This document shows positions 3,723 to 28,200 of a stretch of DNA of 31,015 bases, piece after piece. A program made the position numbers and the translations under genes. The notes beneath the pieces are model-generated. The model had not been told where the DNA came from. It searched no databases and saw only the letters and a program-made list of their open reading frames with translations. How positions within the stretch are numbered: the stretch's first letter is position 1; every line of letters begins with the position of its first letter. This stretch comes from a virus, in the IMG/VR virus record IMGVR_UViG_3300045425_000105, positions 1-31,015 of that record. One strand, written 5' to 3'.

Positions 3723-4025
3723 TTATTTACCCTTGCCTTGTCGACACGAGATATACTCGCGCTTGCGCGCTACTACATAGGCAAACATCAAACGTGTGGA
3801 TGCATGCCCAAGATGCGATAATCCGCTCTCTGAGTCTATACGATCCCCCCTGAGATGCTTAACAGCATGGCTAATAGCTGCGTATATGTGATCACTTACA
3901 GGAATCCTGTCCCATCCTGCAGCCGGGTATTTTGTCATGCCGAATGCAAGCACTTCTCCGACCTCCATGACCCAGTCATGATCAACCAGGTCAATGCCAA
4001 GCTCTGCATCTATATCTTTTATCAT
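3723..4025 (-). CDS. dATP/dGTP diphosphohydrolase-like protein (DUF5664 / MazZ-like domain)
   Basis: The 100-residue product matches the small all-alpha phage family annotated as dATP/dGTP diphosphohydrolase N-terminal domain. The signature is visible: EVLAFGMTKYPAAGWDRIPVSDHIYAAISHAVKHLRG, then the acidic IDSESGLSHLGHASTRLMFA. In the family the His, Glu and Asp residues of these helices are thought to bind metal and hydrolyse purine deoxynucleotides to monophosphates; MazZ of 2-aminoadenine phages is a relative. No PurZ or DatZ is in this window, so a modified-base pathway is not supported here. A GAGG site lies about eight bases before the ATG at 4025. It overlaps the 34-residue gene upstream by four bases. 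Confidence 0.72.
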   Translation of the reverse strand: MIKDIDAELGIDLVDHDWVMEVGEVLAFGMTKYPAAGWDRIPVSDHIYAAISHAVKHLRGDRIDSESGLSHLGHASTRLMFAYVVARKREYISCRQGKGK

Positions 4026-4234: not shown

Positions 4235-4265
4235 TTGCTTTCAACATGTGCGATCAGTGTATAAT
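4235..4265 (+). promoter_or_regulatory. Rightward promoter of the repeat-protein unit
   Basis: A perfect TATAAT at 4260-4265 follows a TTGCTT at 4235-4240 with a long 19-bp spacer. The heptamer CGATCAG occurs on both sides of the -10 box (4251-4257 and 4274-4280), a possible operator. The surrounding 4150-4235 stretch is very AT-rich. The first downstream gene starts at 4311. Confidence 0.5.
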
Positions 4266-4310
4266 TAATTTATCGATCAGGCAATTCCGCCCGGTACAGG
4301 AGCATTGAAA

Positions 4311-4895
4311 ATGAGTAACAAAAAATACGAATTAACGAACGAAACAAAAATTATGCCGACAGGAGAAACTGTGTACAGAATCAGAGCGTTACTCAGTTTC
4401 GACACAATCTATCAACCAGTAAAAGCTGGCGACCTGGGCGGCTGGGTACAGTCAGAAGATAACTTATCCCACGAAGGAAACTGCTGGCTTTTCGAAGAAG
4501 CAACCGGTTACCAAAACGCTAAACGATCTGGTGACTCTGTTGGTTATGGCAACAGTTGTCAGCTTGAAAACAGTCGCCAGTATGGTAACAGCAGGCAGTT
4601 TGGCTGCAGTGTGCAATCAGGCAGCAGCCAACAGTTTGCTGACAGTCGCCAGTTTGGCTGGAGTCGGCAGTTTGGCAACAGTCAGCAATACGACAACAGC
4701 CAACAGTATGGAGACAGCCGTCAATATGGCGACAGCCGTCAGTATGGTGAGAGCCAACAGTATGGCAACAGCCGCCAATATGGTGACAGCCAACAGTTTG
4801 GCTGGAGTAGGCAGTATGACTGCAGCCGCCAGTACGGTAACAGCCGCCAGTATTGCAAAAGCCGTAGGTATGGCAGCAGCCGAACATCGGATTAA
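4311..4895 (+). CDS. YdcK-like hexapeptide-repeat protein A (left-handed beta-helix type)
   Basis: The 194-residue product has an N-terminal domain (1-72) with the motif PVKAGDLGGWVQSEDNLSHE and a conserved GNCWLF, as in prophage and YdcK-type proteins. About 17 six-residue repeats follow, of consensus Q-(Y/F)-G-(N/D)-S-(R/Q). In relatives the repeat reads V-Y-G-N-A-R and is expected to fold as a left-handed beta-helix. Here Val is replaced by Gln and Ala by Ser throughout. The start at 4311 has AGGAG eight bases upstream; a TTG two codons earlier is less likely. It is the first gene of the rightward unit and is followed 37 bases later by a longer paralogue. The function is unknown; beta-helix repeat proteins can act as structural or binding scaffolds. 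Confidence 0.75.
   Translation: MSNKKYELTNETKIMPTGETVYRIRALLSFDTIYQPVKAGDLGGWVQSEDNLSHEGNCWLFEEATGYQNAKRSGDSVGYGNSCQLENSRQYGNSRQFGCSVQSGSSQQFADSRQFGWSRQFGNSQQYDNSQQYGDSRQYGDSRQYGESQQYGNSRQYGDSQQFGWSRQYDCSRQYGNSRQYCKSRRYGSSRTSD
4578..4880 (+). repeat. 18-bp tandem repeat array, about 17 units
   Basis: In-frame tandem units of 18 bp (consensus CAGTATGGCAACAGCCAA with third-position variation) encode the hexapeptide repeats of protein A. Identity between units is strong in DNA as well as protein, which indicates recent expansion by slippage or unequal recombination. The 15-bp sequence at 4881-4895 is directly repeated at 4896-4910, just after the array. Confidence 0.85.
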
Positions 4896-4932
4896 CGAAC
4901 ATCGGATTAACAGCAACACAGGAGCAATAAAA

Positions 4933-6153
4933 ATGAGTACCAACGCTACAACCAAAAAGAAATACGAGCTTACGGAAGAAACAAGAGTGATGCCGACAGG
5001 AGAAACTGTGTATCGAATAAAAGCTTTGCGTGATTTTGATACAACCCATAAGCCAGTAAAAGCTGGTGACTTGGGTGGCTGGGTGCAGTCCGAAAAAAAC
5101 TTATCCCACGAAGGAAACTGTTGGCTTTTCGACGAAGCAACAGGTTATCAAAACTCTAAACGAACTGGTAACGCTGTTGGTTACAATCGTAGCCGTCAGT
5201 ATGGAAACAGCCGTCAGTATGGCGACAGCCAACAGTATGGCAACAGCCAACAGTATGACGACAGCCGTCAATATGGCGACAGCCAACAATGCGGCAACAG
5301 CCAACAGTATGGCTGCAGCCAACAGTATGGCGACAGCCGTCAGTATTGTAATAGTCAGCAGTATGGCGACAGTCAGCAGTATGGTGACAGCGAACAGTAT
5401 GGCGACAGCCAACAGTATGGCTGCAGCCAACAGTATGGAGACAGCCAACAATGTGGCAACAGCCAACAGTATGACTATAGCCATCAGTGTGGAAACAGTT
5501 GGCAATATGGCAATAGTCGCCAGTATGGTAACAGCCAACAGTTTGCTGACAGTCGCCAGTTTGGTAACAGCGAACAGTATGGCGACAGCCGCCAGTTTGG
5601 TAACAGCGAACAGTATGGCGACAGCCGCCAATATGGTGACAGCCGCCAGTATGGAAACAGTTGGCAATACGACAATAGTCGCCAGTTTGGAAACAGTTGG
5701 CAATACGACAATAGTCGCCAGTTTGGAAACAGTTGGCAATACGACAATAGTCGCCAGTTTGGTAACAGCCAACAGTTTGCTGACAGTCGCCAGTATGGTA
5801 ACAGCCAACAGTTTGCTGACAGTCGCCAGTTTGGTAACAGCGAACAGTATGGCGACAGCCGCCAGTTTGGTAACAGCCAACAGTATGACTATAGCCATCA
5901 GTGTGGAAACAGTTGGCAATACGACAATAGTCGCCAGTTTGGTAACAGCCAACAGTTTGCTGACAGTCGCCAGTATGGTAACAGCCAACAGTTTGGTGAC
6001 AGCCGCCAGTGTGGCAACAGCCAACAGTATGACTATAGCCATCAGTGTGGAAACAGTTGGCAATATGGCAATAGTCGCCAGTATGGTGACAGCCAACAGT
6101 TTGGCGACAGCCGTCAATATGGTGACAGCCAGCAGTGTGGCCACGAAGATTAA
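4933..6153 (+). CDS. YdcK-like hexapeptide-repeat protein B (left-handed beta-helix type)
   Basis: The 406-residue product is a paralogue of the preceding gene. The N-terminal 88 residues are highly similar (YELTEETRVMPTGETVYRIK, KAGDLGGWVQSE, NLSHEGNCWLF). It then has 52 complete six-residue repeats of consensus Q-(Y/F)-G-(N/D)-S-(R/Q/E/W), three times as many as protein A. Such an array could form a very long rod if it folds as a left-handed beta-helix. The start at 4933 has AGGAG eight bases upstream; a much longer reading from 4531 runs through the repeats of protein A in another frame and is rejected. Gln at the usual Val position would give a polar ladder, which is unusual. Membrane segments and a signal peptide are absent. 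Confidence 0.78.
   Translation: MSTNATTKKKYELTEETRVMPTGETVYRIKALRDFDTTHKPVKAGDLGGWVQSEKNLSHEGNCWLFDEATGYQNSKRTGNAVGYNRSRQYGNSRQYGDSQQYGNSQQYDDSRQYGDSQQCGNSQQYGCSQQYGDSRQYCNSQQYGDSQQYGDSEQYGDSQQYGCSQQYGDSQQCGNSQQYDYSHQCGNSWQYGNSRQYGNSQQFADSRQFGNSEQYGDSRQFGNSEQYGDSRQYGDSRQYGNSWQYDNSRQFGNSWQYDNSRQFGNSWQYDNSRQFGNSQQFADSRQYGNSQQFADSRQFGNSEQYGDSRQFGNSQQYDYSHQCGNSWQYDNSRQFGNSQQFADSRQYGNSQQFGDSRQCGNSQQYDYSHQCGNSWQYGNSRQYGDSQQFGDSRQYGDSQQCGHED
5197..6132 (+). repeat. 18-bp tandem repeat array, 52 units
   Basis: Fifty-two contiguous 18-bp units, all in frame, encode the repeats of protein B. Higher-order duplications are visible: the block around AACAGTTGGCAATACGACAA recurs three times in a row at about 5676-5755 and again near 5910. 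Because the unit length is a multiple of three, two other frames are also open through the array. Confidence 0.88.
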
Positions 6154-6159
6154 TTAATT

Positions 6160-6389
6160 GGAGTAATTGTCATCCTGCTCCATTTCCGATAGAAATAGCA
6201 CGTGACCATATTTTAAGTTGGTCTAATGAATGTGATTTAATTTTTGATCCATTTGGTGGAAGTGGAACAACGGCAATTGCAGCTGAAAATACAAATCGAA
6301 AATGGGTATGTTGTGAAATAAGTGAAGAATACACAACAAAAGCAGTCGAACGAATTCTAAATCATCAACGCGAAGATGATGGAAATTGA
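6160..6389 (+). pseudogene. C-terminal fragment of an N6-adenine/N4-cytosine DNA methyltransferase
   Basis: The reading frame encodes NCHPAPFPIEIARDHILSWS, then the SAM-binding motif DPFGGSGTTAIAA, then a CCEISEEYTTKAVERI ending. This is the standard C-terminal part of class-beta phage methyltransferases. The catalytic (D/S)PP(Y/W) motif and all of the N-terminal half are missing. The fragment begins right after the stop of the repeat gene, in a different frame and with no ribosome-binding site. The codons are noticeably more AT-rich than those of neighbouring genes. It is probably the remnant left when the repeat genes replaced the 5' part of a methyltransferase gene, or the reverse. Confidence 0.8.
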
Positions 6390-6430
6390 AAATAAAAGAA
6401 ACAGCCCGCCCGCCGGTTTGACTAAACTAC

Positions 6431-6458
6431 AATGGGCTTCGGCCCATTTCTTTTTTTA
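6431..6458 (+). terminator. Rho-independent terminator with UUCG tetraloop
   Basis: A perfect 7-bp stem AATGGGC/GCCCATT (6431-6437 and 6442-6448) closes a TTCG tetraloop and is followed by TCTTTTTTT. It ends the rightward repeat-protein unit and sits just before the 3' end of the convergent tail-like gene at 6467. Confidence 0.9.
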
Positions 6459-22088: not shown

Positions 22089-22360
22089 TCGGCGCTCCTG
22101 AGTATATCTATTAAGGGCCAAAGATCATTCTTGCGGAATACGCCTGCTGGCTTGCTGGTCTCTGTATCCTCGGCAACTAGCTGCGCGTATAGATCCCCGG
22201 TGAACTCGTACATTATAAAGGTTTGCGGATGGTGTGGGGTAAAAGTTCCATCAATTACATTGCCAACTCCTACTAAGCACCGGGCCATCTGCGCAGATTC
22301 TATGTGCTCGTAACTGATTATATCTTCAGACGTTACCGCTGGCTGCGTTAATTCTCGCAT
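22085..22360 (-). CDS. Unrecognised 91-residue protein following the fiber gene
   Basis: The product has a short helix, then strands (GNVIDGTFTPHHPQTFIMYE). No motif is recognised. It starts inside the 3' end of the fiber gene with GAGGAG just upstream, and overlaps the next gene as ATGA. A tail-fiber chaperone role would fit that position, but this is inference only. Confidence 0.55.
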   Translation of the reverse strand: MRELTQPAVTSEDIISYEHIESAQMARCLVGVGNVIDGTFTPHHPQTFIMYEFTGDLYAQLVAEDTETSKPAGVFRKNDLWPLIDILRSAE

Positions 22361-25259
22361 TCATCTCCTCTATCTTATCGTTTAATTGTTGTATCGCTTT
22401 CACAATGATTGACTCGAGACCGTTGTAGTCTACTCCAAGCATACCGTTATCATTATTAATAACCGTGCAGTCGGTTACATCAGTAATGATACCCTTAATC
22501 TCCTGAGCGATAAACCCATGATATCTTTTCCCAGGCTGATCACGCATTTCATACGTTCGAGGACGCATACGCATTACAAAAGCAAGCCCGTCTTCCTCGT
22601 CCAGTATATTATTTTTCAGCCGCCTGTCAGAAGTTGATATTGCGGTAACTGTGTTGCCGGATCCCGACCAACCAACGCCTGGCACGCTGGACGCGAACTG
22701 TATTCCGTTGCCAGCTGCATTGGCCGTCCCGCCGGGGGTGGAGAAAATTCTTGCCCATCCGGCGGATGATACGCCTCCAAGACTGTTGGCATTACCTGCG
22801 GTGCTTGCGGAATCTGACGATACTGCGGTTGCTGCTCTTAGGTTGGCCACGGTTGATGAAGATGTTATGGTCATGGTTCCCTGTACTTGCAGGGCAGGGC
22901 CAGATGAGGAGGACGCTCTGACACCTATCCCGCCAACTGTTGTGCCGTTGCCTATAACCCCGACCCCTCCTTGCCCAGACACCCCAGCACCAGTGCTGCT
23001 GTGGAAGCCGCGAACTGCCTCGAAAGATGGCACTGATGATACGGCGAGCACCCCGCCGCGCCCAGATAGACCTGAATCATTAATGACAGCACCCCAGCTA
23101 CTGCCCCCAGAGCTTGTAAGACCATTAAACTTGGCCGTACCCGCAATATCAATGTTCGCGCTACCAGTAATGTTCCCAGCATTAACACTGCCAAGATTTG
23201 CCGTAATCGCCGATAATGTTGATACATTGATCTTATCCGACGTTATGCTGTTAGACGCAATCCTCGCTGCTGCCAGCGTTCCGGTCGTGATAGATGACGC
23301 GTTAACCGTACCCCCCGCCTTCCACGTCCCGGAAGTCCGGAACCACATTACTTGAGTAGCGGTATTCCAGTGCGCATTGCCATCAACCCCGCCGGTAGGA
23401 TTAGATGATGACTGGGTGAATAAATTTTCTGTCGCGCCTGGTGGCGGCTTAGTGCCTGATACATTGCCGTAATCCAAAGCAGTAATCGCCCCTCCACCAG
23501 CACCAAGTAATGTGCCATTCGATGACAAAGTGATCCCAGTATTTTTAACCCCGCTCGGCGGAGTCCCGTCAATGTTTGCCGTGATATTGCCGGTCACCCC
23601 AGTGCGCACCCATGAGTTAACGATCGCTCCCTTCTCGATCCCTAGACTTGATTTTCTAGCTGCGACAATCCCAACTCGATAGCTCTTATCCATTGGCACG
23701 CCGCTAATAGTGAGATTAGTGGCAGACCCATCTACTGTAGCCAGTATGGGTGATGCAGTGGTAGGATTGGTAGTTCCCTCCAATACATACAGGTAAAAAA
23801 ACTCGGCCTTGCGCGCGCCCTGCGTGTATGACCATGTGAGCTTGATGTCAACAGTACCGATACTGCTGGACGTGGTTGTAACTGCCCCAATGATAGGCTG
23901 ATTTGACGGTGCCCCGGTTGCGCGAAAATCTGTCGTGCCGGTATATGCAGTATCACCATTAGCCGCGTTGCTTTTTATAGCCCCGAATGTCACCCCATCA
24001 ACCGTAGCGCTGTTAACGATGATGCTATTGGCGGCGATTGTCCCGGAGAATACTGGATTCCCTGACGCATCGATACTCACGCTATCAACCCATGCCCCGT
24101 CTGACGACCGGTTGTACCCCATTGCTATCCCGGCCGACGATATCCCAAGAGCGGTTTTTACCGACCCTGGAGCTGCCGATCCCTTATATACTGCGTCTTT
24201 GTGCTGGAAGGTCACCAGCGCGTTAGCCGCATCAACATTAAGCCTGTAATTGCTGCCTATGCCTGCAAGCACGTTTGTGACGCCAGCATCCAACGCGCCC
24301 TGCAGATCAAAAGTGCTGCCAGACGCATCAATAAGGTCCTGCATAGTAGTGCTGCCGCCGCTGATTGTAACGGTATTAGCTATCACGCTATTGGCTGATA
24401 CGGTGCCGAGGAATGTGGCGTTGCCAGCCGCAGATATTGCAACAGAGTTAACCCATGCTCCGTCTGATGATCTGTTGTAACCCATTGCTATCCCTGCCGC
24501 CGAAATACCTAGAGCGGGCTTATTTGACCCGGGCGACGCTGTCCCTTGGTAAACAGCATCCTTGTGCCTAAAGGCCACAAATGCGTTAGCAGTATCAACG
24601 TCTAACCTGTAATTGCTGCCAACCCCTGCCAAGATATCGGCCACTCCAGCGTCAAGCGCTCCTTGCAGATCAAACGTGCTGCCAGACGCATCGATGATAT
24701 CCTGCATGCTCATACCGCTACCGCTGACAGTAACAGTGTTGGTTATCACGCTACCAGCTATTAACTGGCCCTTAATTGTCGCGCTTTGGGCGGTTAGGTT
24801 GCCCAGCGAGTCAACGGAAAACTTCGGCGCGATGCTCCCGCCCGTTGTGAGCGATCCGTTATCAAGGTTAAACTGCGATCCGGTTGTGGTTGTCCAGTTG
24901 GTAGACTCTATAATCCCTGTCTGGATCTTCCCCCCGGTGATCCTGGTCATACTGGACTTATCTATGCCGCCAGTCGGGTTGCCGCTTATATCTCGTATCC
25001 AGTCGGCAATGTTCAGCTGGCCAAGTATGCTTACCTGATCCGCCATAAGCACAATATCGCGGTCTGTAAGGATGATCCTTGCAAGAGCATCTGCCGATAC
25101 AGCGTGCTCAATCTTACGCTCAGCATTATTAACTCTTGCCGCCAGCCTGTCGATAAGCGCCGCAATATCAAGACCGGTTTCTGGGGCGGTTACAACTGCT
25201 GCGGTATTGTCTGACTCTGTTCCTCCGCCATCAGGCGACGGCTGAAAATACAGTGACAT
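22326..25259 (-). CDS. Tail fiber protein with S74 intramolecular chaperone
   Basis: The 977-residue protein probably trimerises and binds the host. The N-terminal part (1-150) has a J-like segment: AALIDRLAARVNNAERKIEH, then IILTDRDIVLMADQ. It is followed by two 121-residue tandem repeats containing DASGSTFDLQGALDAG and GIAMGYNRSSDGAWV, then an FN3-like region. A Gly/Ser-rich shaft with collagen-like and VxGxGTTVGGIG segments follows. The last 110 residues are a Peptidase_S74 domain (STSDRRLKNNILDEEDG, YHGFIAQEIKG) that chaperones trimer folding and then cleaves itself off. The start at 25259 overlaps the J-like stop as TAATG. Confidence 0.88.
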   Translation of the reverse strand: MSLYFQPSPDGGGTESDNTAAVVTAPETGLDIAALIDRLAARVNNAERKIEHAVSADALARIILTDRDIVLMADQVSILGQLNIADWIRDISGNPTGGIDKSSMTRITGGKIQTGIIESTNWTTTTGSQFNLDNGSLTTGGSIAPKFSVDSLGNLTAQSATIKGQLIAGSVITNTVTVSGSGMSMQDIIDASGSTFDLQGALDAGVADILAGVGSNYRLDVDTANAFVAFRHKDAVYQGTASPGSNKPALGISAAGIAMGYNRSSDGAWVNSVAISAAGNATFLGTVSANSVIANTVTISGGSTTMQDLIDASGSTFDLQGALDAGVTNVLAGIGSNYRLNVDAANALVTFQHKDAVYKGSAAPGSVKTALGISSAGIAMGYNRSSDGAWVDSVSIDASGNPVFSGTIAANSIIVNSATVDGVTFGAIKSNAANGDTAYTGTTDFRATGAPSNQPIIGAVTTTSSSIGTVDIKLTWSYTQGARKAEFFYLYVLEGTTNPTTASPILATVDGSATNLTISGVPMDKSYRVGIVAARKSSLGIEKGAIVNSWVRTGVTGNITANIDGTPPSGVKNTGITLSSNGTLLGAGGGAITALDYGNVSGTKPPPGATENLFTQSSSNPTGGVDGNAHWNTATQVMWFRTSGTWKAGGTVNASSITTGTLAAARIASNSITSDKINVSTLSAITANLGSVNAGNITGSANIDIAGTAKFNGLTSSGGSSWGAVINDSGLSGRGGVLAVSSVPSFEAVRGFHSSTGAGVSGQGGVGVIGNGTTVGGIGVRASSSSGPALQVQGTMTITSSSTVANLRAATAVSSDSASTAGNANSLGGVSSAGWARIFSTPGGTANAAGNGIQFASSVPGVGWSGSGNTVTAISTSDRRLKNNILDEEDGLAFVMRMRPRTYEMRDQPGKRYHGFIAQEIKGIITDVTDCTVINNDNGMLGVDYNGLESIIVKAIQQLNDKIEEMNARINAASGNV
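23967..24692 (-). repeat. Two 363-bp tandem repeats inside the fiber gene
   Basis: Units 24692-24330 and 24329-23967 encode 121-residue repeats, both starting at DASGSTFDLQ. DNA similarity is high, including near-identical stretches around 24300 and 24663. This is an internal duplication that lengthens the fiber. Confidence 0.8.
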
Positions 25260-28200
25260 TATTCTGGCCTCCAATCTGTAATTGGTATTATAGGCGATCT
25301 TACTACTCTCATCCCGCTTAATCTGTATGTTGCCATGGTGGCCGCCCCCCACGCTCCCGGCGGTATGGTTACATGCACATCAGTAGATGCCTCGAAGCTC
25401 CCGTCATCCAGCTCAACAAAGTTGGCGGCCGGGATATAGATTATGTCAGTACCAGCTCCTGGGGCCGGGTAATACTGCGCCTTGATCGCTGTAACCTGGG
25501 TCGTGCCCTCTTGCGCTCGCGCTGGCGTGCTGATCCTGTACTTCCCACCAATAAATGTGATCTCTCCCCACTTGGCTACCTCAGTGCTGCCGTTCGCGGC
25601 CACAAGATTGAGCAAGCGGAATTCCTCGTCGCGCTCATCTGCAAAGGCAAGCTCAACCCAGGTGACATTTGCACCTATGGTGGGCGTCGCAGTAAACGGC
25701 TGGGCAAACTGCACTGAGTTTGCATCATTAGACGTTGCCTTGCGATATTCGATGCCATCCAGAGATGCCCAGAAAAATCCAGACAGATTGATATCTGGGA
25801 GTGGGTCAGATGCTGGAGCTATCACAATATCATCATTGGTGGATCCAGCCAAAATATTGAACGTCCCGGTATTGAGTACCTCAACACTATTGATCAGCAG
25901 ATACGATCCAAAATCAGTAACTGTAATTTCGCGCGGCTCGGATTGCACGCTGAACATCAGGGCCACGGCGGATGGTGTTGCGCCAGTGGTCAATTCGACA
26001 TTAGCCCTAAGCTTAACCCTTGACACATATCCGTCCGACTCAAGCGTATAAGACGCACGAACATTTGTGGGAGCTGGCAAGCCAAGCTCAAATTCAGTTT
26101 GCACGTTTACGACCGTGAGCGGCTCAGACCAAGGTGATTCTGCGTTGCTAAAAAATCCATGCAGCCCTTGTACCTGCCCGGTCTGCTTGGCCTGCAGCTC
26201 ATACGTGCCCTCGCTCTCTACCTCTATATAGAGCGTCCCGGAATCCACGGATATAACCTGCCACGGATCCCCTGCTGTTGCGTCCCGGTATCTCACAAAA
26301 AACCTGCGGTTTGCCAGTGGCGTGCGTACGTCCACATCGCTGACAGACCCGGACACAAAGATGCGTCGCTTAAACTCTCCGCTTGCTATATCTCCTTGGT
26401 ACAGCTCGGCATAAGCATGATCTATAATAGGCGCATCCAGTTGTACGGGCACTAGCTTGCCGGTTATCTGGGTGTTAAATGGCGGGATTGGTCCGGTATC
26501 TGCGGTATAGATTGCTGGCGCGTAATCCACCAAAAAGATTTGCGCTACAAGATCAGACTGCCTACGGATGCTGTGCACAATCAAGTCAACGCCAGTGCTA
26601 TCGGCCACATTAAACATTGCCAAGTCATCAGCTACAGGCGCGCTCGCTATAGGCAGCGGGGATGCAAACATCAGAGTATTGGTGTCCCCGTCAACGGTAT
26701 TGATCGTTAGCACCAAAGATGCACCGGATAGCATCCGGAATCTGCACGCATATATCTTGCCAGACTCCATGGATACGGTCTCGTCCAAAATTACGCCTGT
26801 AGCATTAGGCCCAGACGTGATAACAGATTTAACCCGGCCCCAATGATCACCCCATCTCGGTATATCGTGCAGCACTTTAACCAGACTATTGCGTGCAAAT
26901 GTCAGATGCTCAAAGTCCATATACACGCTATACATTTCGGGCCGCAGCCGTGCTTGGGCAATATGGAATCTGCCAAACTTCCAGGCTAAATCGCTATCGG
27001 TTATGCCTCTAAACTGCAGCGCCTCAATAACGGTTGCGTTGCCTGCATTGTACCCGTCGTCGTATGCGATAACCTCATCCGCCAGATAGTCCTGGTCCTG
27101 GTTGTTAAATCCAATTTTAAAGCCGTGCGGCATATCTATTAACGACTTGGACGAACTAAACCCCCAGCTATTGCGTGGGGTTATATGGCCGTCGATACTG
27201 CGAGCCATACCATCAACGGTCACAGACCACATATGGCCAAATCTCTTATAGGGAGCAGCCCGCCCGGCGAAAGCTATATCGCTGATCGTATCCCATACGC
27301 TTTGGATCTCATCATGTACCCGGTTGTACTTGTATCCTTGCGTCTCGCAAAAATCATACCACTCACCTAACAGCACATCATCAAGCGCAGACACATCAGC
27401 ACCGCGCACGATCGCTTTATGGGTTAGCGCTGCGCGGAACAGCGCTGCCGGGTTGCTAGATGTACCAGTCGGGACTGACTCCCAAGCCCCTCCGCCCAAA
27501 TGCTTGCATGCATACGACTCCACCATACAATTAATTATATCAATCTGATTTTGCGCGCCCTCTGACGCCTTAATACGCATGGCAATCTGTGCCATCTTCA
27601 CAGGGTAATTTAATGGCGGATCATTGCGTATACCTCGCATCACCGACCAGTAAACCTTGTCCGCCGTTTTTTCCGACGGATCGTCTACAGTTGCGCGGAA
27701 CAGTCCGATGTCATAGCTCTTAGTCCGGTCAATTTTTGATGTAAGCGTCCGGCGAACCATAGATGTTGTTTTACCGGTAACAGTAAATGCAGACGGGGGA
27801 TCAAACGATCCACCAGAAACATTGATGTGCGTGCCTGTGGAAGATATAACCAGACCTGACTTGCCTGGCAGGGCGTTATGTACTATCCCGCTGACTGTCC
27901 CGGTAGAGCTTAAGATAAACCCGCCGAGCGTGGTGAACCCTGGCATGCTGCCGCCCGCACTTCCAGGGTGTATCTCAATAACTCCACCCATGCCTGGCAA
28001 CACGACCGCCCATCCTCCAGTATATAGCTCTGACTTTGCCTTGCTTATACCTGAGTATGTCCTGGTAGCGTCAAAGTCATTCCACGTTCCAGACCCATGC
28101 TCGCGCCACCGGACCTTTATATCTATCGTTACGCTTGTCTTGTTACCTTTTTTGTTGTAATGCACAAGCCCCTGCGGGAATGCGATATCAACAGCAACCT

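What the first reader, a model, noticed from the sequence alone, without database searches (positions are those of the whole stretch)
4235..6458. Self-contained unit with two paralogous hexapeptide-repeat proteins whose beta-helix core appears to be a glutamine ladder
Seen: promoter, two tandem genes with almost identical 72-88-residue heads (KAGDLGGWVQSE...NLSHEGNCWLF), 17 and 52 uniform six-residue repeats, and a strong UUCG terminator. Known: relatives (YdcK and prophage proteins) have repeats like V-Y-G-N-A-R, expected to form a left-handed beta-helix with Val and Ala inside. Here Val is Gln and Ala is Ser in nearly every unit, so the interior would be polar. Inference: either a new kind of solenoid held by Gln/Ser ladders and stacked Tyr/Phe, or a fibrous or prion-like polymer. 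The unit looks like a moron expressed independently of phage modules, and the copy-number difference suggests repeat-length variation.
Basis: partly seen in the sequence, partly recalled or inferred. Interest (0 to 1): 0.75.

Follow-up and report, generated by a model that had tools for sequence, protein, structure and literature searches.

The report
Phage solenoid with glutamine-serine core
Two neighbouring genes of an uncultured phage belong to a widespread but uncharacterised family of six-residue-repeat proteins; here the two repeat positions expected to be buried have switched from valine/alanine to glutamine/serine in almost every repeat, while the rest of the repeat is unchanged.

Summary
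Gene 1 (4311-4895, 194 aa) and gene 2 (4933-6153, 406 aa) share a head (77-79% identical) followed by unbroken runs of 17 and 52 hexads, Q-[YF]-G-[ND]-S-x. The head belongs to a large phage family (phrog_5070; 373 IMG/VR matches), distantly related to solved YdcK. Nearly all relatives have V-Y-G-N-A-R hexads. Against 122 relatives, only positions 1 (V to Q, 98%) and 5 (A to S, 98%) differ; positions 2, 3, 4 and 6 keep nearly the same residues. Proteins are all-or-none, with no V/Q mixtures. Q/S proteins occur in six phage lineages here (ten contigs). One lineage encodes every position-5 Ser with TCN and the others almost all with AGY, which favours separate origins. Best reading: a beta-solenoid of the YdcK-like family whose core has been replaced by near-isosteric polar Gln/Ser ladders, analogous to ladders modelled in ice-nucleation protein and curli. 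Fold details are not proven: one AlphaFold2 model of five gives a solenoid, right-handed, at odds with the YdcK relationship, and AF2 over-predicts solenoids for repeats. Biological role unknown; most likely an accessory rod or scaffold. Novelty: new variant of a known kind.

The parts
4235..4265 (+). Possible promoter: TTGCTT, 19-nt spacer, TATAAT (weak)
   Evidence: coordinates; not listed by the sigma-70 scan
4311..4895 (+). Gene 1, 194 aa, Q/S-core hexapeptide-repeat protein (short paralogue)
   Evidence: ribosome-binding-like AGGAG shortly upstream (read)
4311..4487 (+). Head of gene 1 (residues 1-59, up to the conserved CW)
   Evidence: phrog_5070 E 6.3e-34 over residues 3-170; up to 49% identity to phage homologues
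4560..4865 (+). 17 uninterrupted Q...S. hexads of gene 1 (residues 84-185)
4881..4911 (+). 15-bp tandem duplication CGAACATCGGATTAA that includes the gene 1 stop codon
4933..6153 (+). Gene 2, 406 aa, Q/S-core hexapeptide-repeat protein (long paralogue)
   Evidence: AGGAG shortly upstream (read)
4933..5124 (+). Head of gene 2 (residues 1-64)
   Evidence: 79% / 77% identical to the gene 1 head
5197..6132 (+). 52 uninterrupted Q...S. hexads of gene 2 (residues 89-400); DNA amplified in 36-bp and 144-bp units
6153..6389 (+). C-terminal remnant of an N6/N4 DNA methylase directly behind gene 2
   Evidence: PF01555 E 3.5e-21, profile positions 160-220 of 221
6431..6458 (+). Intrinsic terminator AATGGGC-TTCG-GCCCATT followed by a T tract

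Best explanation
The unit encodes two paralogous members of the phage YdcK-like hexapeptide-solenoid family. Each is a ~60-residue N-terminal cap followed by a beta-solenoid whose coils are built from hexads. SHOWN: in this and five other phage lineages the two hexad positions that are hydrophobic/small in the other relatives (1 = V/I/L, 5 = A) are uniformly Gln and Ser, while the remaining positions are nearly unchanged. INFERRED: positions 1 and 5 are the inward ones, so the hydrophobic core has been replaced by axial Gln and Ser side-chain ladders (hydrogen-bonded polar zippers). Gln is nearly isosteric with Val and Ser with Ala, so the coil can keep its size. The all-or-none pattern follows if a polar ladder works only when each rung is stacked on a like rung. 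INFERRED, weak: the product is a cytoplasmic, accessory (moron-like) rod or scaffold with a Tyr/Phe-studded surface, made in a short and a long version; its target is unknown.
For: Position-wise comparison of 260 hexads from 9 Q/S proteins with 1905 hexads from 122 relatives: Jensen-Shannon divergence 0.99 at position 1 and 0.84 at position 5, but 0.06-0.10 at positions 2, 3, 4, 6. Bimodality: Gln fraction at position 1 is at least 0.77 in 9 proteins, at most 0.08 in all others. Never Glu at position 1 although the run definition allowed it, in 267 hexads with both CAA and CAG in use. No phase break in any of 9 Q/S proteins, against 18 of 131 others. One Q/S protein (L009) keeps the same C-terminal domain as V/A relatives such as the Pd_22F protein. 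V/A relatives show lag-3-hexad correlation (position 5 z 6.7, positions 2 and 4 z 3.3), the stacking expected of 18-residue coils. Relationship to solved YdcK: E 3.2e-6. AF2 of gene 1: strands at hexad positions 5-6-1-2, turns at 3-4, repeat pLDDT about 68-88; an out-of-frame, equally six-periodic translation of the same DNA gave pLDDT 39 and no solenoid. Precedents: internal Ser and Gln ladders modelled in ice-nucleation protein (PMC3196904), Gln ladder in curli (PMC10192328). Ser codons at position 5 are 33/33 TCN in L081 but 248 of 260 AGY in the others, which favours repeated origin of the same core.
Against: No experimental structure. [quoted passage not shown] The control had no alignment, so it is not matched. 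The model's handedness disagrees with YdcK. Repeats inside a gene are not independent, because gene 2 was amplified recently. One origin of the Q/S type is not rejected by the head tree (AU p 0.15). No conserved neighbour gene and no defence-database match points to a role.
Confidence: 0.68

Rival explanations
1. A prion-like or low-complexity chain: Q/S/G/Y/N-rich repeats with Tyr and Arg 'stickers' that stay disordered and condense or form amyloid; the resemblance to hexapeptide solenoids is only ancestry.
For: In gene 2 Q, S, G, Y and N make up about 62% of residues. Four of five AF2 models were poor. No Pfam repeat family matches.
Against: Exact hexad phase in all nine proteins, Gln and Ser fixed at two positions only, Glu never replacing Gln, and the other four positions keeping the preferences of the solenoid relatives. 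A loose low-complexity chain would not need this.
Confidence: 0.13
2. A solenoid, but re-registered or re-wound: the switch to Q/S accompanies a different coil (for example right-handed, as in the AF2 model and in modelled ice-nucleation protein), so the interior is not simply the old core with new residues.
For: VIA-align gives 2.3-3.0 A over 90-133 residues to right-handed beta-helices (tapirin 6n2b, pectate lyase 4yzx, Ag43 4kh3, bactofilin 6ria) but 10-12.6 A to YdcK, LpxA- and LpxD-type helices. Ice-nucleation protein was modelled as right-handed with Ser/Gln ladders.
Against: Homologous head and, in L009, homologous C-terminal domain flank the repeats; positions 2, 3, 4 and 6 are nearly unchanged. 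AF2 handedness here rests on one model of five.
Confidence: 0.15
3. No special structure: recent tandem amplification of one founder hexad made the repeats uniform, and Q/S is merely what the founder carried.
For: Gene 2 holds 36-bp and 144-bp repeat units and 80-bp exact duplicates 270 bp apart. Codon usage inside each gene is lineage-specific.
Against: Positions 2, 3, 4 and 6 vary widely in the same arrays and synonymous sites vary, yet positions 1 and 5 stay Gln and Ser; the same pair recurs in lineages with different Ser codon families.
Confidence: 0.04

Closest known systems
YdcK (PDB 2f9c, 2pig) and phage families phrog_5070 / phrog_7964, often annotated 'polymer-forming cytoskeletal protein' or 'acyltransferase'
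   Same: Homologous N-terminal head (phrog_5070 E 6.3e-34 and 5.4e-62; PDB E 3.2e-6); hexad repeats in the same register; same residues at positions 2, 3, 4, 6; tandem paralogues common in the family
   Different: Gln/Ser instead of Val/Ala at positions 1 and 5; perfectly regular repeats without loops; up to 66 uninterrupted hexads (L096)
Left-handed beta-helix hexapeptide acyltransferases (LpxA, LpxD, GlmU; Pfam Hexapep)
   Same: Six-residue periodicity; the family-level solenoid architecture
   Different: No Pfam match at E up to 1; no hydrophobic [LIV] at the i position; no loops interrupting the repeats
Bacterial ice-nucleation protein central repeats (model PMC3196904)
   Same: Proposed internal Ser ladder and Gln ladder; exposed Tyr ladder; very long regular repeat array
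   Different: 16-residue repeat with TQTA/SLTA motifs, right-handed model, ice-nucleating protein; no sequence relationship found here
Curli subunit CsgA (PMC10192328)
   Same: Gln side-chain ladder hydrogen-bonded along a beta-solenoid axis
   Different: About 22-residue strand-arc-strand repeats with a hydrophobic centre; secreted amyloid
Bactofilins
   Same: Cytoplasmic beta-helical rods; the AF2 model superposes on 6ria at 2.4 A over 90 residues
   Different: Hydrophobic core; no sequence match in Pfam

Membership tests
Phage YdcK-like hexapeptide family (phrog_5070) | Conserved N-terminal head (YRI.AL ... GD.GGW ... NLS ... CW) | tested here: met
Phage YdcK-like hexapeptide family (phrog_5070) | C-terminal tandem hexads in fixed phase with the head | tested here: met
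Phage YdcK-like hexapeptide family (phrog_5070) | Hydrophobic residue at hexad position 1 and Ala/small at position 5, the rule in the 122 other head-bearing proteins tabulated | tested here: not met
   Gln 98% and Ser 98%; so it is a variant branch of the family, not a canonical member
NCBIfam YdcK_fam (NF040481) | Score above the curated cut-off of 350 bits | tested here: not met
   35.7 and 42.4 bits; distant relative only
Left-handed beta-helix (Hexapep) proteins | [LIV]-[GAED]-X2-[STAV]-X repeats recognised by Pfam Hexapep | tested here: not met
   no Pfam family up to E 1
Left-handed beta-helix (Hexapep) proteins | Left-handed coil with 18 residues per turn | tested here: inconclusive
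   Relatives show lag-3 stacking; the AF2 model of gene 1 appears right-handed
Ice-nucleation proteins | 16-residue repeats with TxT-type ice-binding motifs | tested here: not met
   Repeat period is 6 residues (18 bp and multiples)
Bactofilins | Sequence match to the bactofilin family in Pfam | tested here: not met
Prion-like low-complexity domains | Disordered chain that forms condensates or amyloid | not testable with these tools
   Composition is compatible; behaviour needs experiment
Known anti-phage defence proteins | Match in PADLOC-DB | tested here: not met
   no match up to E 1

The most novel reading that the evidence does not exclude
A natural beta-solenoid in which the whole hydrophobic core of a known fold has been exchanged, all-or-none and more than once in evolution, for hydrogen-bonded Gln and Ser ladders. 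It would be a soluble, genetically encoded realisation of the 'polar zipper' beta-helix that was proposed for polyglutamine.
Probability: 0.5. Interest if true: 0.8.

Novelty: new variant of a known kind. Interest (0 to 1): 0.62.

Why it matters
Stable protein folds are thought to need a hydrophobic core. Here a large natural family gives matched pairs: same head, same surface preferences, same period, but either a V/A core or a Q/S core, with nothing in between. That is a ready-made experiment on whether side-chain amide ladders alone can hold a solenoid, which is the question behind polyglutamine beta-helix models and behind the proposed Gln/Ser ladders of ice-nucleation proteins. It also exposes a very common phage protein family (hundreds of IMG/VR contigs) whose role is unknown.

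Tried and rejected
Frameshift origin of the Q/S repeats: rejected, because the relatives' V-Y-G-N-A-R and Q-Y-G-N-S-R are in the same reading frame and share four positions. Out-of-frame ORFs (540 and 363 aa on +, 347 aa on -) are by-products of stop-free frames of an 18-bp repeat. DNA-mimic idea: net charge is near zero. Conserved partner gene: clustering of neighbours in 90 loci gave no general partner, apart from family paralogues and, in a few loci, early-region genes such as an SSB-like protein. Wider searches: no Q/S array in INPHARED by DNA, none related in 697 genomes of two phyla sampled by an AGY-codon pattern (the single hit is an unrelated QDDISI repeat), none among the 8 bacterial loci found with the Q-type head alignment. 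The two plasmid tblastn hits inspected were unrelated compositional repeats. Lag-3 stacking could not be tested within Q/S arrays, because the core is invariant and gene 2 was amplified in 2- and 8-hexad units. Open-access papers searched held no description of a Q/S hexapeptide solenoid; most subscription papers are not in that library.

Full report
What is there. The window is a 31,015-base IMG/VR virus record. Two + strand genes, 4311-4895 (194 aa) and 4933-6153 (406 aa), stand alone between - strand genes and are followed by a strong UUCG terminator at 6431-6458. A promoter is possible (TTGCTT-19-TATAAT at 4235-4265) but was not listed by the scan used. Both genes have a similar leader (AGGAG before the start) and heads of 77-79% amino-acid identity, followed by 17 and 52 unbroken hexads.

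Family. The head belongs to phrog_5070 (E 6.3e-34 and 5.4e-62) and is a distant relative of YdcK (NCBIfam 35.7 and 42.4 bits against a cut-off of 350; solved structures 2f9c/2pig, E 3.2e-6). 105 phage records and 373 IMG/VR stretches encode it. In 27 of 90 loci it occurs in two to six copies. Almost all relatives carry V-Y-G-N-A-R-like hexads.

The core swap. I anchored the hexads on the conserved Trp of the head and compared nine Q/S proteins with 122 others. Position 1: Q 98% against V 71 / I 18 / L 4. Position 5: S 98% against A 76 / V 7 / S 5. Positions 2 (Y, F, S, C ...), 3 (G, D), 4 (N, D) and 6 (R, Q, K, E, W) are close to identical in the two sets (Jensen-Shannon 0.06-0.10). There is no intermediate protein: the Gln fraction at position 1 is at least 0.77 or at most 0.08. 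Within the Q/S arrays CAA and CAG both occur, as do AGC and AGT, so the residue rather than the DNA is conserved; Glu, one mutation away, never occurs at position 1 in 267 hexads (those runs were defined as Q or E at position 1 and S at position 5, so only the absence of Glu is informative there, and the unbiased counts are). The first three or four hexads after the head deviate in a shared way (G, R, G at position 1 in the window genes and L003), which looks like a transition cap.

Where else. Q/S proteins were found in five further lineages: L003; L009/L010; L004; L092 with L093/L095/L096/L097 (four contigs of one phage, where a short 217-aa and a long 501-aa gene again stand in tandem); and L081. 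L009 ends in the same C-terminal domain as V/A relatives, so only the middle of the protein was exchanged. On the head tree the Q/S label needs four changes, at least two forced by well-supported branches, but one origin is not rejected by the AU test (p 0.15; 61 columns only). Independent evidence comes from codons: all 33 position-5 serines of L081 are TCN, whereas 248 of 260 in the others are AGY, even though those genes use TCN for other serines. Moving between the codon families needs two base changes, and TCN is one change from Ala GCN. I therefore think that the Q/S core arose, or at least was amplified, independently at least twice; repeats within a gene are not independent data.

Fold. 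In the V/A relatives residues correlate at a lag of three hexads (position 5 z 6.7; positions 2 and 4 z 3.3), as expected if 18-residue coils stack. In the classical left-handed beta-helix the position-1 residue and the small position-5 residue point inward (established knowledge). Val and Gln, and Ala and Ser, have nearly equal volumes (about 140 and 144, 89 and 89 cubic angstroms; from general knowledge), so the swap conserves volume. AF2 with an eight-sequence alignment gave strands at positions 5-6-1-2 and turns at 3-4, pLDDT 68-88 in the repeats, but only in the best of five models. A six-periodic out-of-frame translation of the same DNA gave pLDDT 39 and no solenoid; it was run without an alignment, so the control is not perfectly matched. 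The model fits right-handed beta-helices (2.3-3.0 A) and not left-handed ones including YdcK (10-12.6 A); its best matches among predicted viral structures are V/A members of the same family, likewise at high rmsd. Because AF2 makes confident, unrealistic solenoids for near-perfect repeats, I take from it only that a hexad-periodic solenoid is compatible, and leave handedness open.

Mechanism. Shown: head homology, phase, the two-position swap, its all-or-none nature and its recurrence. Inferred: Gln and Ser form axial hydrogen-bond ladders inside the solenoid. Such ladders have been modelled in ice-nucleation protein (internal Ser and Gln ladders with an outer Tyr ladder) and in curli. A ladder works only with like on like, which would explain why V/A and Q/S are never mixed. 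Uniform hexads are interchangeable, which fits amplification in units of 2 and 8 hexads (36 and 144 bp) that do not respect a three-hexad turn. Weakly inferred: the products are cytoplasmic accessory rods or scaffolds; near-neutral charge argues against DNA mimicry, no defence-library match was found, and no neighbour is conserved across loci.

Verdict. I class it as a new variant of a known kind.

Noticed in passing
6153-6389: Only the C-terminal third of an N6/N4 DNA methylase remains directly behind gene 2; in L010 (1061-1180) an orphan fragment of Q/S repeats lies directly in front of a methylase of the same Pfam family, so recombination at repeats may link the two.
   Followed up: partly
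L089 2640-2963: In Vibrio phage 1.034 the hexapeptide repeats inside a protein gene are annotated as 'CRISPR spacers', probably a misannotation of an 18-bp coding repeat.
   Followed up: no
L015 2771-3496 and 3998-4702: Two relatives have a Met/Leu-rich position 1 with Ser or Ala at position 5 (SQMLGNSQMLGN), another fairly uniform core variant of the same family.
   Followed up: no
24087-24753: A 363-bp duplication (1.8 copies, about 75% alike) inside the large tail-region gene 22326-25352 on the - strand.
   Followed up: no
2185-2691: HNH-type gene with an AP2 domain (PF00847 E 4.8e-9), probably a free-standing homing endonuclease.
   Followed up: partly
3723-4025: dATP/dGTP diphosphohydrolase N-terminal domain (PF18909 E 1.4e-16) on the - strand next to the unit.
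   Followed up: no
Hits H2, H5, H20, H46 (Javan phage records): Head-bearing hexapeptide proteins are annotated 'glycerol kinase' in several Streptococcus Javan phages, most likely a propagated misannotation.
   Followed up: no
L022, L038, L041, L062, L070, L076: Relatives of the V/A type stand in arrays of four to six divergent paralogues in single phages, unusual for a gene family without known function.
   Followed up: partly
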